From contig NZ_JAQTXM010000011.1 in the NCBI RefSeq assembly GCF_028688795.1, positions 1 through 64,000 on the forward strand: a DNA stretch of 64,000 nucleotides, given 5' to 3'. The stretch comes from Rhodoferax sp. (GTDB lineage: Bacteria > Pseudomonadota > Gammaproteobacteria > Burkholderiales > Burkholderiaceae_C). The position numbers and the translations under genes are program-made. The notes under the pieces are model-generated. The model did not search any database. It was not told where the DNA came from and saw only the letters and a list, made by a program, of their open reading frames with translations. Below are positions 202 through 7,571 of the stretch, piece by piece (the first letter of the stretch is position 1; the number at the start of each line of letters is the position of its first letter).

Positions 202-918
202 GTGGCCATGGCAGCAGCAGCCACGCATGACTTTGGCGATGCCGTCTGGCGTGCCGACGCCCTGGCGCGCCACGCCAGTCCGGCCGGTGTGGTGGCCACT
301 GGCCATGCGCTGCTGGACGCCGAGCTGCCCGGCGGTGGCTGGCCCGTGGGGGGTTTGTGCGAGATTTTGCAAAGCCACAGCGCCCAAAGTGAGTGGCGCT
401 TGCTGCTGCCGGCCTTGTGTACCGCACAGCAAGGCACCAGGCCAACCGCTGCACAGTGGGTGGTGCTGATCGGCCCGCCGCATGTGCCGTTTGGTCCGGC
501 CCTGGCCGCACAGGGGCTTGATGTGCGGCGTCTGCTATGGGTCAAGGAACAAGCCCCTGCCGAGCGGCTGTGGACCGCAGAGCAAGCCTTGCGTTGCGAA
601 GGCGTGGCTGCCGTGCTGGCCTGGTTGCCGCAGGTGCAGGCAGCGCAACTGCGACGGCTGCAAATGGCCGCCCTGACACACGCCAAGCTGCTGTTTGTGA
701 TGCGCCCGGCGGCGGCACGGCACGAGTCGTCGCCGGCCGTGCTGCGGCTGCTGTTGCCGACACCGTCACAAGAGGCCAGCCCGTGTGCTGATCTCGACGC
801 CCTGCACATTCAGGTGCTCAAGCGCCGCGGGCCACCGCTGGCAGGCGCCTTGGCCCTGTTTGCCCGCGCCGCAGACAAGTGGGAGCGCCAGCATGCACTG
901 GATTGCCTTGCAGCCTGA
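202..918 (+). CDS. imuA: Translesion synthesis-associated protein ImuA (RecA/SulA-like)
   Basis: 238 aa; 'HALLDAELPGGGWPVGGLCEI' and RecA-like core, followed by overlapping imuB. Confidence 0.8.
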   Translation: MAMAAAATHDFGDAVWRADALARHASPAGVVATGHALLDAELPGGGWPVGGLCEILQSHSAQSEWRLLLPALCTAQQGTRPTAAQWVVLIGPPHVPFGPALAAQGLDVRRLLWVKEQAPAERLWTAEQALRCEGVAAVLAWLPQVQAAQLRRLQMAALTHAKLLFVMRPAAARHESSPAVLRLLLPTPSQEASPCADLDALHIQVLKRRGPPLAGALALFARAADKWERQHALDCLAA

Positions 919-2461
919 ACCCGTGCCTGCCGATGGGGCCGACAGCCTCACCGACCCCGTCACCGCTTTGGGCTGGTGGGCGCTGCGCTACACGCCCAAG
1001 GTGGCGCGCACAGGCGATGTGCTGCTGCTAGAGGTGGCGGCCAGCGCCCGGCTGTGGGGTGGCCTGCCTGCGCTGCTACAGCATATTCTTACATCAAATC
1101 AGCCTGCAGACCTTTATAAATATGCGCAAGCAGCTACGTCTTTAATAGCATTGGCAGCGCTTGAGGTGAGGCCATCCAGCGCCCTGCAGCCTGTCAAGCC
1201 GATGCTGGGAAAACGCCTGCCTGAGACAAGGCCGCTGGCAACAGGTCTGCCCGCACACAACCCACCCCTGAATAGCCAGTCAGCAAATGACTTGGCCGGC
1301 ATCCATCCATCTGTGGACAAGCTAACGCCAGACGACTTGCCGCTGCATGCCTTGGCCGCCGCCCAGCCGCACCTTGACACCCTGGCGCGCTTGGGCGTGA
1401 CCACCTGGGGCCAGTTGCGCGCGCTGCCGCGTGGCGGCGTCAGCCGGCGGTTTGGCGCGGCGCTGCTTGACGCACTCGACCAAGCCTACGGCGAGCGTCC
1501 CGACCTTTACCCCTGGCTGACGCTGCCCGAGGTGTTTGAGGCGTCGCTGGAACTCAGCGCCCAGGTTGAAAGTGCCCCCGCCCTGCTGTTTGCCGCGCGC
1601 CGTTTGCTAGCGCAGCTTAAGGTCTGGCTGCAGCTGCGCCACCGCGGTGTGCTGGCGCTGGAGCTCCGGTGGCAAATGGATGAACGCCGCCACACCGACC
1701 ATCAGGGCACGCTCCTGCTGCGCACTGCCCAGCCGACACAAGACAGCAGCCATTTGCAGCGCCTGCTGGGCGAACATCTGGCGCATGTGAGCTTGCCCGC
1801 ACCGGCCCACACCTTGCGCCTGCGCACACTGGAAACCGCCGCCCTGTCCCATGACAGCGCCAGCTTGTTGCCTGATGCCGTGAGCACGGGTGACAGCCTG
1901 GCGCAGATGGTGGAGCGCCTGAGCGCCCGCTTAGGGCCAGAGCAGGTGCTGCAACTGCAGCCGCGTTTGGACCACCGGCCCGAGCAGATGCAGACATGGC
2001 AAAAAGCCGCTACACAGTTAATAGCTGCTCACGCTTATGAAACAAGGGCTACAAGCCAAAAATGCTTAAAAATTCCAAACACATCCGTTGTCACGGCGGG
2101 TTGTGGGCTGGGTTCTGCCGATGCGACGCAAAGCCAAGCTGCGCCCGTGCCGGTATCTACGCCAGCGTCCGCGTGGGTGTCAGGCGGTGGTTCCTGGGCG
2201 CAGCCGCTGGCCCCCACCTGGCTGCTGCAAGCGCCCCTGAAACTGGCGCTGCGCCAGCAGCAGCCGCAATACCGGGGGCCGTTGACCTTGCTGACTGGCC
2301 CGCAGCGCATCGAATCCGGTTGGTGGGGCGGCGGCGATCTGGCGCTGCGAGACTACTTTGTGGCACGCAGTGCACAGGCCGAGCTGTTGTGGATTTACCG
2401 CGAGCGGCTGCCAGACGCACAAGCAGCGTCCGCTTGGTATCTGCATGGCATCTTTGCCTGA
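893..2461 (+). CDS. imuB: ImuB, Y-family DNA polymerase-like protein
   Basis: Start ATG at 893 (MHWIALQPEP) overlaps the imuA 3' end; 'LARLGVTTWGQLRALPRGGVSRRFG' HhH-type region; C-terminal 'GPQRIESGWWGGGDLALRDYFVARSAQAELLWIYRE' is typical of ImuB. Confidence 0.85.
   Translation: MHWIALQPEPVPADGADSLTDPVTALGWWALRYTPKVARTGDVLLLEVAASARLWGGLPALLQHILTSNQPADLYKYAQAATSLIALAALEVRPSSALQPVKPMLGKRLPETRPLATGLPAHNPPLNSQSANDLAGIHPSVDKLTPDDLPLHALAAAQPHLDTLARLGVTTWGQLRALPRGGVSRRFGAALLDALDQAYGERPDLYPWLTLPEVFEASLELSAQVESAPALLFAARRLLAQLKVWLQLRHRGVLALELRWQMDERRHTDHQGTLLLRTAQPTQDSSHLQRLLGEHLAHVSLPAPAHTLRLRTLETAALSHDSASLLPDAVSTGDSLAQMVERLSARLGPEQVLQLQPRLDHRPEQMQTWQKAATQLIAAHAYETRATSQKCLKIPNTSVVTAGCGLGSADATQSQAAPVPVSTPASAWVSGGGSWAQPLAPTWLLQAPLKLALRQQQPQYRGPLTLLTGPQRIESGWWGGGDLALRDYFVARSAQAELLWIYRERLPDAQAASAWYLHGIFA
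1083..1151 (-). repeat. Dispersed ~60 bp repeat, in-frame inside imuB (copy 1)
   Basis: Reverse complement CAATGCTATTAAAGACGTAGCTGCTTGCGCATATTTATAAAGGTCTGCAGGCTGATTTGATGTAA. Confidence 0.7.
2014..2075 (+). repeat. Dispersed ~60 bp repeat, in-frame inside imuB (copy 2)
   Basis: CAGTTAATAGCTGCTCACGCTTATGAAACAAGGGCTACAAGCCAAAAATGCTTAAAAAT. Confidence 0.75.
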
Positions 2462-2566: not shown

Positions 2567-3391
2567 TCAGCGCGCTTGGGCGCGCCGGGGTTTTGGCTTT
2601 TTGCTGCTGTCGCCTTCAGCGATTTTTTTGACCTGCGCCTGTTTTTCCTTGTCGCATTGGTCCAGGCACAGCAGGGCATCGACATACGACGTGAACCGGT
2701 TCAGGTAATCAGGCGATACCTCACGCATCACCGCCAGTGAGCGCAGTACAAGCCTGTGTGGATTGAGCGGCCCGGCGTTTTTGGGGGCCTGCTCCAGCGC
2801 TTGGGTAACCCGCTTGGCCACGCTGATTTTGGACCAGGTGTTTCTGAAATATTGCGTGGCATTGGGCTCGGGATGCTGCCCGGCAGGTCCTGCAAAACGC
2901 TGCGCCTCTGTCGCCCCCATTGGCTCCAGGGTCTGCCCAATGGCTTGCCCAGACACACGCTGTGTCAAGTCGCGGGTCAGGTCGCCCAAAGACGCAGGCT
3001 GCGCGTTGGTTGTCAGGCCCCGAATGCGTTGCTTCACGCCTCTGGCATCGCTTGTTTCAAGCAGCGGCTGCAGCTTTGCGGCAGTCTGCGGGGCCATTGG
3101 GTTGATGGCGTTTTGGGCATCAGCTTGCGCATGCGCAAAACGCGCTGTGAACGCCGCCAGCGCTTGCGCCAGTTTGCCGTCAAGCAGCGCCCTGACACGA
3201 CCTTGCTGGCCGCTGGCGCGGCGGGCCAGAACGCCAAGGTAATGCAGGCCGACCGGGTCAAACCGGTCTGCGCCGGCCTGGCGCAAAGCGGCCAAGGCCG
3301 CGCCGACATCTGCGGGTTGGTCTGCCTGCGGTGCTGACCTCTCGCGGTGGTTGGCCTCAATCACGTCATTCACCTCAAACACCTCACTCAA
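2567..3391 (-). CDS. DUF2894-like protein (possible Zorya accessory protein)
   Basis: 274 aa; 'ADRFDPVGLHYLGVLARRASGQQGRVRALLDGKLAQALAAF'; last gene of overlapping operon (4-bp overlap with the OmpA-like gene). Confidence 0.65.
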   Translation of the reverse strand: MSEVFEVNDVIEANHRERSAPQADQPADVGAALAALRQAGADRFDPVGLHYLGVLARRASGQQGRVRALLDGKLAQALAAFTARFAHAQADAQNAINPMAPQTAAKLQPLLETSDARGVKQRIRGLTTNAQPASLGDLTRDLTQRVSGQAIGQTLEPMGATEAQRFAGPAGQHPEPNATQYFRNTWSKISVAKRVTQALEQAPKNAGPLNPHRLVLRSLAVMREVSPDYLNRFTSYVDALLCLDQCDKEKQAQVKKIAEGDSSKKPKPRRAQAR

Positions 3392-4023
3392 GGAGCGGCT
3401 TTGGTGTTGCTGGTCTTGGGCACGGGCGCCATTTCAACGCGTCGGTTTTGCGCGCGCGCGGCATCGTCCGTGTTGGGGGCCAAGGGCTGCTCGGCACCAA
3501 AGGCAGCGGCAAAAACCATCGACGCGGGCATGCCGTCTTCAATCAAGGCCCGGGTCACGGTCAGCGCTCGCTGGGCTGACAACTCCCAGTTGTCGGCAAA
3601 TCGCGCGTTACCGTCGCGTATGGATCGGTCATCGGTGAAACCGCTCACCATCAGCAGCTCGTTGCGCGAGGCCAGATATGCTTGCAACGGTGCCACCAGG
3701 CTGCTCAGCAGCTGGCGGCCTTCGGGCTGCAGTTGGTCGGAATTCAGCGCAAACAAGACCCGGCCACTGATGCCAATGCGTCCGTTGTTCAAGGTGATGC
3801 GTCCGCTGGCCAGCGGAATGGCCAGGGCTTTTTCAAGGCTCATGCGGCGTTGTTCTTCAACCTGACGTTTTTGCACCTCGGCTTGCAGGCTGGTCTGCAG
3901 CTCCATTTGCACACCCAGAACACCCACCAAAATCAGCACAAAAGCCCCCAGCAGCCCCGACATCAGATCGCCAAAAACGGCCCAGACGGGCGCGGTTTGC
4001 TCGATACCGTCACTGTTTTCCAT
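3388..4023 (-). CDS. MotB/OmpA-like protein (ZorB-like)
   Basis: 211 aa; N-terminal single TM with an Asp at its start (VWAVFGDLMSGLLGAFVLILV), C-terminal OmpA-like peptidoglycan-binding domain (FALNSDQLQPEGRQLL...GFTDDRSI...QRALTVTRALI...NRRVEM). Confidence 0.8.
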   Translation of the reverse strand: MENSDGIEQTAPVWAVFGDLMSGLLGAFVLILVGVLGVQMELQTSLQAEVQKRQVEEQRRMSLEKALAIPLASGRITLNNGRIGISGRVLFALNSDQLQPEGRQLLSSLVAPLQAYLASRNELLMVSGFTDDRSIRDGNARFADNWELSAQRALTVTRALIEDGMPASMVFAAAFGAEQPLAPNTDDAARAQNRRVEMAPVPKTSNTKAAP

Positions 4024-6191
4024 CAGTTCACCTCTTGCGCAGACAAGGCCTGCTGACGCGGCAACTGGCGCAGTTCTTCAAAGATTTCCTTCTGCGACAG
4101 GGTGCTCAAGTCAATCAGTTCACGCGCCTGCGCCACGTAATAAGCCAGCTGCTCATCGCTGCGGGTCATGGACTTGTCCATGGCGACCTCGATGCGTTGC
4201 AGTTGGCTCAGCAGCTTCTCATTGGCCGCGCCAAACGATTGCACGGCAAAGCCAAAGGTTTCACCCAGGCTGGAGACCTCCACCGCACTGCTGTTGACGT
4301 GGGCGGCCACGTCGGCCAGTTTGCCGGTTTCCACACCCAGCTGGTCGGCAAACTGGCTGCTGACGGTGTTGAGTGCTACTGCTGAAGAGGCCACCAGCGT
4401 GTCGATCACCGCGCGCTGCTCAGCGGCGGCGTGGTGGATGGCCTCCAGCAATGAATTCAGCGTGGCCATGATGCGGCTGCGCTCTTCCAGCAGCTCGTTG
4501 TCGCGCACCAGGCTGCCCGACATCTCCTGGCGCAATTGCCCAATGACCTCGGCGGCCGCCCGGGGTGCTTCTGAGGCGGTGGCGATGAGCCGCGTGATGG
4601 GTGCTTCCAGCGCGGTGCCCAGTGTGGCCAGATGGCCGACCATGGCCGCCTGCAAGTCGCCCAGCCGGTTGACCGCCGCCAAGCCGCGCTGCGCTTCGTC
4701 ATCTCTGAGCGCGCCAAGTTCGCTGCGCAACAGGCTGGCCAGCTGGTCCATGCGCTCACCGTGCTGCGTGAGCCAGTCGGCCTCTGCCGCAATGCGGCTG
4801 TAGCCTTGCGTTTCTGAAGCGGTCACCAGCCGCGAGATGTCACTCAACGTGGCGCTGGCGCTCAATTTCGCCTGTTCGGTGATGCCGTGCGCGGTGTCGA
4901 CCAGCGTGCTGCAGATGTGCTGCTGCTGGGCCAGCGTTTGCGCCCCGGCCTGTTGCCATTCTTGCTGCAGGTTTGCTGCCATGGCGTCGAGTGAGCCAAT
5001 CCACGCCTGCTGGCGTTGCTGATCAAGCGCCGCCTGATCGACCTGCAGCGTGGCGTAGGCTTGGTTGATTGAGGTCAACAGCGATGTGGCGCGCTGCTCA
5101 AAGGTGTCGGCAAAGCCGCTCAGGGATTGACCAACACCACTGACCATGCTGGCGCTGCTGCGTTCGTGGCTGGCCAACGCCGCCGTCCAGTTGTCGGTGA
5201 CGGTGGCAGCGGTGACAGCGAGACTGGCCGCCAACCCATCAAGTTGCGTTTGTGCGGTGTCGATCAAGCGGGTGTGCAACAGCCGAGCTTCTTGCGCCAT
5301 GCCAGTCATGGCGGTCTCGACCATGGGTTTGAGGCTGTCGCTGGCCACGTGGGCACTTTGCGCCAGACTGTCCTTGAGGGACTGGCCCACGGAAGACGCC
5401 AGTTCGCTGTAAATGCCCTTGACCTCGCTGTGAAAGCTGGTCTGGTTGCTGGTCAGCTGGGTATTGAGCTGCTGGCTCATGTGGGCCATCTGAGTCATCA
5501 TGGTCTGCAATTTGTCAACCACTTCAGGCAGGGCCTGGGCTTGGTACTGCAGCGCCTTGTAGGTTTCCTGGCGTTGGTGGGTGAGTGAAAAACTGCGCAA
5601 GCTGGTGGCCAGTTTGCTGTCAAGCAGTTGTGACGCCCGCAGCCTGTCGCCCCGACTGAGAGCCGACATCAGGCCCAGCATGGCAGATGTGGCCACGCCG
5701 GCCACTGAGGTGCCAAAGGCCAGCCCCAAGCCTTTGATGGGCGCAGCCAGCGCAGCGCGGATCGCCTGCAGGTCGGTCGTGCTTTCCAGTGAAAACGCGG
5801 CGCCGTTGAGCGTGACCACCATGCCCAGAAACGTGCCTAGCATGCCCAACATCACCAGTAGCCCCACCAGGTAAGGTGTCAGCACCGGGCCGGGCAAGCC
5901 AATGCGTTCGCCTTCAATGCGCAGGCGCACCGGGTTTTGCAAGGAAGCATGCACGCCGTCAAGCCAGTCCCCCAGGCTTGCCAGCTGCTCAGGAATAGCC
6001 GCCAGCGCTGACGACAGCGTGGCCGTGGCTCGGCCGTACTGGCGCAATTCAAGCGCGCCGAACACGTACACGGCGGCAATCAACAGCGTCATCGTCAGCG
6101 CCAAGAGATGCGAGCCGATGAACCCGGTGCCGACCCAAACGACGGCCATGGCGCCCAACAAAAAGGCGCCGTTGAACAAATGTTTCTTCAT
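4023..6191 (-). CDS. MotA/TolQ/ExbB-like protein with long coiled-coil tail, DUF802-type (ZorA-like)
   Basis: 722 aa; N-terminal TM helices, 'PYLVGLLVMLGMLGTFLGMVVTL ... IKGLGLAFGTSVAGVATSAMLGLMSAL' MotA/ExbB signature, followed by >450 aa Ala/Gln-rich predicted coiled coil. Confidence 0.8.
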   Translation of the reverse strand: MKKHLFNGAFLLGAMAVVWVGTGFIGSHLLALTMTLLIAAVYVFGALELRQYGRATATLSSALAAIPEQLASLGDWLDGVHASLQNPVRLRIEGERIGLPGPVLTPYLVGLLVMLGMLGTFLGMVVTLNGAAFSLESTTDLQAIRAALAAPIKGLGLAFGTSVAGVATSAMLGLMSALSRGDRLRASQLLDSKLATSLRSFSLTHQRQETYKALQYQAQALPEVVDKLQTMMTQMAHMSQQLNTQLTSNQTSFHSEVKGIYSELASSVGQSLKDSLAQSAHVASDSLKPMVETAMTGMAQEARLLHTRLIDTAQTQLDGLAASLAVTAATVTDNWTAALASHERSSASMVSGVGQSLSGFADTFEQRATSLLTSINQAYATLQVDQAALDQQRQQAWIGSLDAMAANLQQEWQQAGAQTLAQQQHICSTLVDTAHGITEQAKLSASATLSDISRLVTASETQGYSRIAAEADWLTQHGERMDQLASLLRSELGALRDDEAQRGLAAVNRLGDLQAAMVGHLATLGTALEAPITRLIATASEAPRAAAEVIGQLRQEMSGSLVRDNELLEERSRIMATLNSLLEAIHHAAAEQRAVIDTLVASSAVALNTVSSQFADQLGVETGKLADVAAHVNSSAVEVSSLGETFGFAVQSFGAANEKLLSQLQRIEVAMDKSMTRSDEQLAYYVAQARELIDLSTLSQKEIFEELRQLPRQQALSAQEVN

Positions 6192-6961
6192 GGGGGGGTG
6201 TTTGTCTCGTGGTGAAAGGCTTCAATGAGCCCCAAAGCGGGTTGCAGGCGAAGGTCAAGCTCGGCCAGCAACACCGTCTGCATTTCGTGGCCAAAGCGCA
6301 CCAGCCAGCTGGGTGGGTGCAGGCGCCTGGCTGGGGGCTCTGTGGCTTGGGTGTCGGTCTGTGTCTGCTGCTGCGCTTGGCGCAGTTGCTCAAAACGTCG
6401 CCTCAAAAGCAGGGGAACGGTGGCGAGCAACTTGCTCTCGCGCTCGCTCAGTATCTCGTCAAACACCGCGTCCAGCGCGGCCAACTGCTTGAGCGCGGGG
6501 GAGGTCCTGGCCAGCAACTCTCGCGCTGCAGCGCGCAGCGGACGAACGCTTGTCTCGATGGCGCGCTGGTGGGCCTGGTAGTAACGCCGATAGGGCTCAT
6601 AGGCGGTTGGGGTGTCCAGCGGCTCGCCAGGCTGCGGGTCGGGCAGCTCGATGTGGGTGTGACTGGTGTTGGGCGAGCCACACCCGGTGATCGCATTCTC
6701 AAGACTGGTGCGTGTTCGGGCCAATATTTCGGCAATGGTCACGCGCGCGACAGATGTCGCCCCAACGGGCAGAGCAGTCGGGCTGGCTGCTCTGGCGTTG
6801 TGCGCCGCATGCAGGGCAATGGACTCATGCAGGCTCAACCATAGCCCCAGCTTTTCGGCAAACGCGCCGCCTGGCTCGACTGCATCCACGAGGGTCAGGT
6901 CGGCAAGAACACGAATGAGGTTGGAGCTGTGGAGGTGTGTACGCGTGAGGACTCGCGTCAT
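6188..6961 (-). CDS. DUF3348-like protein (possible Zorya accessory protein)
   Basis: Start chosen at internal MTRVLTRTHLHSSNLIRVL; 'LADLTLVDAVEPGGAFAEKLGLWLSLHESIALHAAHNA' resembles DUF3348; 4-bp ATGA overlap with next gene. Confidence 0.65.
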   Translation of the reverse strand: MTRVLTRTHLHSSNLIRVLADLTLVDAVEPGGAFAEKLGLWLSLHESIALHAAHNARAASPTALPVGATSVARVTIAEILARTRTSLENAITGCGSPNTSHTHIELPDPQPGEPLDTPTAYEPYRRYYQAHQRAIETSVRPLRAAARELLARTSPALKQLAALDAVFDEILSERESKLLATVPLLLRRRFEQLRQAQQQTQTDTQATEPPARRLHPPSWLVRFGHEMQTVLLAELDLRLQPALGLIEAFHHETNTPP

Positions 6962-7201
6962 ATCGGAGGGGAAGGAATCGGGGGGATGGTGTGGGCGCTG
7001 AAGAATCCATCGACATCTAACGCCGCATCTTGCGGACATGCAAGATAAGTCTGATTTTACTGTCACATAAAGCGAGTGACAGATCAGTCCACTCCATCTG
7101 GATTTCATCAACCTTAAGCTATTTAAAAAATAGCAACAATCCTTTGTTTAAAAAGCACGACAAGCCAGTTTATATAAATTTCAGACTGCCTTGGACTGGT
7201 A

Positions 7202-7348
7202 TCAAACCGGGTATATCTTGACCGGGCGAGTAGCCACCGGAAATCCGGCTGCACCTAACGTGTCGGCAATGGCCTTGTTGGTGTCGAAATACACCTGCCA
7301 GAAGTGGTTGGTGTGGCAATAGGGACGCAACACCAGCAGGAAGATGCC
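7202..7348 (-). pseudogene. Remnant of MscS-family mechanosensitive channel C-terminus
   Basis: Minus-strand frame between in-frame stops reads GIFLLVLRPYCHTNHFWQVYFDTNKAIADTLGAAGFPVATRPVKIYPV*, resembling an MscS C-terminal domain; no upstream gene body. Confidence 0.45.
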
Positions 7349-7571
7349 TCATTGCCCTTGCGCCGTACTCAAGCAGATCACCCCCAATCCCCTCGTTTTC
7401 CCTCTCCCAAAAAAAATTTACAAATACCGATTGACAGAATTGATTCCATATTTCAGAATCCACCCCCACAGATCAACGAGTCCATACAGCGGACTCTGAC
7501 AACCGGAGACAGCGCATGTTGACGTATTCAACCCGTTCAGGGTGTTTGAAATTCGCCCCTGGGAGCCACTG

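What the first reader, a model, noticed from the sequence alone, without database searches (positions are those of the whole stretch)
2567..6961. ZorAB-like (Zorya-type) motor operon with DUF3348 and DUF2894 partners: candidate anti-phage defence system
Seen: four minus-strand genes joined by 4, 1 and 4 bp overlaps. The 722-aa protein has a MotA/TolQ/ExbB core followed by a very long predicted coiled coil. The 211-aa partner has one TM helix with an Asp at its start (FGDLMSGLLGAFVLILV) and an OmpA/MotB peptidoglycan-binding domain. This is the ZorA/ZorB architecture, not flagellar MotAB, whose MotA lacks such a tail. Established: Zorya systems pair ZorAB with variable effectors. My recollection, not verified here, is that a type III Zorya pairs ZorAB with accessory proteins named ZorF and ZorG, possibly of the DUF3348/DUF2894 kind. 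Inference: these two flanking proteins are the effectors or regulators.
Basis: partly seen in the sequence, partly recalled or inferred. Interest (0 to 1): 0.85.

Follow-up and report, generated by a model that had tools for sequence, protein, structure and literature searches.

The report
Zorya type III anti-phage motor operon
Four overlapping genes encode a complete, already described type III Zorya anti-phage system, a membrane motor with two helper proteins; it is an ordinary member, except that the length of its long internal shaft varies across species only in whole helical turns.

Summary
In detail: a minus-strand operon at 6961-2567, DUF3348 - MotA-like/coiled-coil - MotB/OmpA-like - DUF2894, with 4, 1 and 4 bp overlaps. 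All four proteins hit PADLOC's Zorya type III models, far above types I and II (ZorA3 5e-265, ZorB3 1e-112). Zorya III was defined in 2021 from this gene set, and one copy, from Stenotrophomonas, reduced phage plaquing in E. coli. ZorB Asp19 aligns with the ion-carrying Asp of solved ZorB structures and is conserved in at least 93% of relatives. The two accessory proteins are all-helical, resemble no solved fold and show no nuclease or helicase domain; DUF2894 is strongly basic. One observation I did not find in the papers I could search: the core-to-tip distance in ZorA varies from 365 to 904 residues, but in steps of about 3.64 residues, replicated in an independent set, as expected of one unbroken helical shaft. 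No phage phenotype was tested for this copy.

The parts
6188..6961 (-). DUF3348 protein, 257 aa (ZorF in Payne 2021 and Mariano 2025; called ZorG3 in PADLOC-DB)
   Evidence: PADLOC 3.3e-73, Pfam PF11828 1.1e-69; AlphaFold model all-helical, pLDDT 83
4023..6191 (-). ZorA type III: MotA/TolQ/ExbB-like core, then a long helical tail with one DUF802 repeat and a conserved tip (about residues 674-700)
   Evidence: PADLOC ZorA3 5e-265; only significant PDB match of its first 203 residues is ZorA type I 8VVN_C, E 0.00068; tip conservation
3388..4023 (-). ZorB type III: one TM helix with Asp19, OmpA/MotB-type peptidoglycan-binding domain
   Evidence: PADLOC ZorB3 1.4e-112; first 71 residues match ZorB 8VVN_B and 8QYD_F with Asp19 aligned to Asp24 and Asp26
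2567..3391 (-). DUF2894 protein, 274 aa, TTG start (ZorG in Payne 2021; called ZorF3 in PADLOC-DB), basic with a basic C-terminal tail
   Evidence: PADLOC 4.5e-65, Pfam PF11445 2.5e-53, pI 9.85
7196..7355 (-). decayed MscS-type channel gene remnant just upstream of the operon; outside the system, marks its boundary
   Evidence: 83-85% identical to the 3' end of an intact gene in related genomes

Best explanation
It is a complete type III Zorya system. By homology, five ZorA and two ZorB form an ion-driven motor in the inner membrane, with ZorB's periplasmic domain gripping peptidoglycan. Disturbance of the envelope by an incoming phage would trigger ion flow past ZorB Asp19, and ZorA would turn. 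The movement would run down one unbroken helical bundle, the ZorA tail, to a conserved tip, where the DUF3348 and DUF2894 proteins are recruited or switched. These have no nuclease or helicase domain, so they probably act as an adaptor (DUF3348) and a nucleic-acid or nucleoid binder (the basic DUF2894), possibly calling in a host enzyme. Family membership, the motor residues, the unbroken tail and the obligate four-gene unit are supported here by sequence. Defence activity is shown in the literature for one relative. The trigger and motor steps are inferred from types I and II, and the action of the two partners is inference only.
For: PADLOC type III models for all four genes, with type I and II models far behind. 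The same gene set was defined as Zorya III and a Stenotrophomonas copy protected E. coli. ZorB Asp19 aligns with the Asp of 8VVN and 8QYD and is among the positions at least 93% identical in 85 sequences; the D24N change abolishes defence in types I and II. The ZorA core matches ZorA type I. Accessory genes and ZorB co-occur in the same 56 of 201 genomes, one copy each. Distribution is patchy: 10 of 34 good genomes in the genus, 56 of 180 in the family. Place in the genome is variable. The tip motif is strongly conserved (mean identity 0.84 over residues 676-700) although tail length varies. The ZorA core-to-tip distance is quantised at 3.64 residues, replicated in 59 further sequences. DUF2894 is basic (median pI 10.3).
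Against: No experiment exists for this copy or this genus. Only one type III system has a published plaquing test in the papers I could search. The ZorAB tree follows bacterial families fairly well (8 label changes against a minimum of 5), so much of the spread is within families. It does not lie in an obvious defence island: the sequenced neighbours are imuA-imuB and branched-chain amino acid and phenylacetate metabolism genes. In B. cenocepacia only the first one or two genes of its Zorya I and III operons changed on infection, and neither was counted among the transcriptionally active systems.
Confidence: 0.9

Rival explanations
1. A non-defence envelope or trafficking machine: a MotAB/TolQR/ExbBD-type motor with a housekeeping or niche role that was named Zorya only by resemblance.
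For: ZorB has a named NCBIfam family (PRK09040) and an ordinary OmpA domain; ZorAB roughly follows bacterial families; the locus is syntenic within Limnohabitans; only one type III copy has been tested against phages.
Against: Present in under a third of species of genus and family, at unrelated places, and the tested homologue reduces plaquing. N-terminal ZorB and ZorA resemble Zorya structures and not flagellar ones.
Confidence: 0.07
2. It is Zorya III, but the effect is ion leakage or membrane depolarisation (abortive), with DUF3348 and DUF2894 only regulating the channel, as Payne et al. suggested.
For: Neither accessory protein shows an enzyme domain or a solved fold; Payne et al. proposed regulators of ZorAB.
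Against: Types I and II use the tail to reach separate modules, with a nuclease in type II, and the tail is required. The strongly conserved tip at the far end of a very long tail would have no evident purpose for a leak. DUF2894 is strongly basic, hinting at nucleic acid.
Confidence: 0.25
3. A flagellar-type MotAB stator pair.
For: MotB/OmpA-like C-terminus matches MotB structures.
Against: The ZorA PDB match is ZorA, not MotA; tail of about 460 aa; invariant DUF3348 and DUF2894 partners; patchy distribution.
Confidence: 0.01

Closest known systems
Zorya type III (Payne et al. 2021, PMC8565338)
   Same: All four genes, order and domain content; PADLOC type III models fit all.
   Different: Nothing defining. 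This copy is from a beta-proteobacterium near Rhodoferax, at a different locus, and is untested.
Zorya type I (ZorABCD)
   Same: ZorA/ZorB core, TM Asp, peptidoglycan domain, long ZorA tail.
   Different: No ZorC or helicase ZorD; ZorA3 tail length varies widely, while component sizes are described as well conserved within types I and II.
Zorya type II (ZorABE)
   Same: ZorAB motor.
   Different: No HNH nickase ZorE; longer ZorA.
Flagellar MotAB / TolQR / ExbBD motors
   Same: Likely 5:2 ion-driven core; OmpA-type domain in the B subunit of MotAB.
   Different: Long cytoplasmic tail with conserved tip, two dedicated partners, accessory distribution.

Membership tests
Zorya type III | ZorA: MotA/TolQ/ExbB core plus long C-terminal tail, type III clade | tested here: met
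   ZorA3 5e-265 against ZorA1 8.5e-9; tail
Zorya type III | ZorB with TM Asp and OmpA/MotB domain, type III clade | tested here: met
   ZorB3 1.4e-112 against ZorB1 1.4e-18; Asp19 aligned to Asp24/Asp26
Zorya type III | flanked by DUF3348 and DUF2894 genes in one operon | tested here: met
Zorya type III | accessory, unevenly distributed genes | tested here: met
   genus 10/34, family 56/180 good genomes; variable place
Zorya type III | reduces phage plaquing | not testable with these tools
   shown for the S. nitritireducens copy only
Zorya (all types) | ZorA5B2 assembly, ion flow, peptidoglycan binding | not testable with these tools
   solved for types I and II only
Zorya type I or II | ZorC+ZorD or ZorE present | tested here: not met
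   none in the operon; neither accessory protein matches them
universal housekeeping motor | near-universal, syntenic conservation | tested here: not met

The most novel reading that the evidence does not exclude
Type III Zorya works without a nuclease of its own. A rotary motor drives one unbroken, phase-locked helical shaft of almost freely variable length, whose conserved tip presents or winds a basic, nucleic-acid-binding DUF2894/DUF3348 module, so protection would come from mechanical action on phage DNA or from a recruited host enzyme.
Probability: 0.25. Interest if true: 0.6.

Novelty: new member of a known kind. Interest (0 to 1): 0.3.

Why it matters
As a locus it is an ordinary member of a published defence type. 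What type III uses as its effector is an open question: its two partner proteins have no recognisable enzyme domain or solved fold. The finding that the tail length changes only in whole helical turns, from 365 to 904 residues, over a conserved tip argues that rotational register between motor and tip matters and that absolute length does not. This is directly testable by inserting helical turns or fractions of turns into the tail.

Tried and rejected
PDB profile searches with DUF3348 and DUF2894 gave nothing significant, and Foldseek of both models gave no match with E under 0.001. The DUF2894 model is of middling quality (pTM 0.48), so its negative is weak. Phage records hold no DUF3348 relative. 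Plasmid records with ZorB are mostly large replicons of Burkholderiaceae, most predicted non-mobilisable, so plasmid carriage is no proof of mobility. The family tree was 'quick' and many records are bins with loose names, so I claim no specific transfer event. A first search used the wrong Pfam number, PF13618, and is not evidence. The Pfam search with the short upstream peptide found nothing; the intact relatives identified it as the end of a channel gene.

Full report
What is there. The window holds a minus-strand operon of four genes from 6961 to 2567: DUF3348 (257 aa from ATG 6961), a 722-aa protein, a 211-aa protein and a DUF2894 protein (274 aa), joined by overlaps of 4, 1 and 4 bp. Pfam finds DUF3348, DUF802 inside the tail of the 722-aa protein, OmpA in the 211-aa protein, and DUF2894. 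The 211-aa protein has one hydrophobic segment (12-44) carrying Asp19. The 722-aa protein has hydrophobic segments in its first 115 residues and then a tail of about 460 residues with 3 prolines.

What it is. Every protein hits PADLOC's Zorya type III models, with type I and II models far weaker: ZorA3 5e-265, ZorB3 1.4e-112, ZorF3 4.5e-65, ZorG3 3.3e-73. Payne et al. 2021 (PMC8565338) defined Zorya type III as ZorAB flanked by DUF3348 and DUF2894 genes, counted 6,401 loci, and found that the Stenotrophomonas nitritireducens copy reduced plaquing in E. coli. Mariano et al. [quoted passage not shown] Both papers call DUF3348 ZorF and DUF2894 ZorG; PADLOC-DB 2.0.0 has the two names the other way round.

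Motor features. The first 71 residues of the B subunit match the two solved type I ZorB proteins best, 8VVN (E 0.00032) and 8QYD (E 0.31, not significant alone). Asp19 aligns with Asp24 and Asp26. In type I, 8VVN Asp24 is the ion-carrying residue, and D24N abolishes defence in types I and II. The first 203 residues of the A subunit match ZorA type I, 8VVN (E 0.00068), with the conserved Thr120 and Ser162 aligned to identical residues. In alignments of 83-85 relatives these positions are at least 93% identical, as are the peptidoglycan-domain residues around F129-D132 and N193-R195.

Housekeeping or accessory? DUF3348 occurs in 10 of 34 good-quality genomes of the genus, 56 of 180 of the family, and 18 of 270 in a sample of the order. 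Read off the lists by hand, DUF3348 above its cut-off, ZorB and DUF2894 are found in the same 56 of 201 genomes. Two further, incomplete assemblies show one or two of the genes, and one copy per genome is the rule. In named loci the gene order is constant. Flanks are mostly not shared: 50 of 3,655 locus pairs share three or more flanking genes, mostly among Limnohabitans, and two of these pairs are the same contig fetched twice. Copies in five other genomes of the genus that I inspected lie away from imuA-imuB. The ZorAB tree clusters by bacterial family with some mixing (8 label changes, minimum 5). This is the pattern of an accessory locus that moves mostly among near kin, not of a universal gene.

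The accessory proteins. Profiles of both families find no significant PDB relative. AlphaFold models are all-helical (DUF3348 pLDDT 83, pTM 0.81; DUF2894 pLDDT 77, pTM 0.48), and Foldseek finds no match below E 0.001. Neither carries a nuclease or helicase domain, unlike ZorD or ZorE. DUF2894 is basic (median pI 10.3) with a basic C-terminal tail in 93% of members, which hints at nucleic-acid binding; this is inference.

The tail. Between fixed landmarks, the ZorA tail varies greatly in length, in part through one to four DUF802 repeats. Its last conserved stretch (residues 676-700, mean identity 0.84) is among the best conserved parts of the protein, while the middle falls to 0.26-0.55. The distinct core-to-tip distances cluster at a period of 3.64 residues (34 lengths, Rayleigh statistic 21.0). 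I then fetched 60 further operons and repeated the test with HMM landmarks on 59 of them: the best period was again 3.64 (49 lengths, statistic 15.9), and lengths seen only in this second set gave 9.6 at that period. None of 2,000 random length sets reached the observed values. The range over all 133 sequences is 365 to 904 residues. Any unbroken coiled coil should behave so; the point is that the tail seems to have no loose joint, which fits transmission of rotation. A few of the second-set genomes may be near relatives of first-set loci. I did not run the control on types I and II.

Mechanism. Best supported: phage entry disturbs the envelope, the peptidoglycan-anchored motor is released, ZorA turns, and the tail tip recruits or switches the two partners. 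The motor part is carried over from types I and II. The action of the partners is not known; adaptor plus nucleic-acid binder is my preferred inference, and regulation of an ion leak is the main rival.

Surroundings. The operon converges on imuA-imuB, and the window begins at the contig start. The genome's second DnaE lies on another contig, while in several relatives dnaE2 follows imuB directly or after a few kilobases, so the space after imuB is variable. Just upstream of the operon lies a decayed end of an MscS-type channel gene. Contigs of identical length in the genus sample and among the named loci are titled Rhodoferax or Polaromonas, so the source is probably near Rhodoferax.

Noticed in passing
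window 7196-7355 (-): Decayed remnant of an MscS-type mechanosensitive channel gene directly upstream of the operon: an early and a late piece of the gene are joined at an RPY motif that occurs twice in the intact gene. Intact copies exist in related genomes.
   Followed up: partly
window 202-2461 (+): imuA-imuB without an adjacent dnaE2; the second DnaE of the genome is on contig C97. In relatives the stretch after imuB varies, from dnaE2 directly to unrelated genes.
   Followed up: partly
ZorA tails, window 4023-6191 and L035-L198: Core-to-tip length varies 365-904 residues but in steps of 3.64 residues; DUF802 occurs in one to four copies, and is not found in some.
   Followed up: yes
window 2567-3391 and 6188-6961 (gene names): ZorF and ZorG are swapped: PADLOC-DB 2.0.0 calls DUF3348 ZorG and DUF2894 ZorF, the papers the reverse. 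Automatic annotations may mix them up.
   Followed up: yes
L066:9899-10651: ZorB open frame split in two pieces in one Comamonadaceae bin, a possible broken copy or sequencing error.
   Followed up: no
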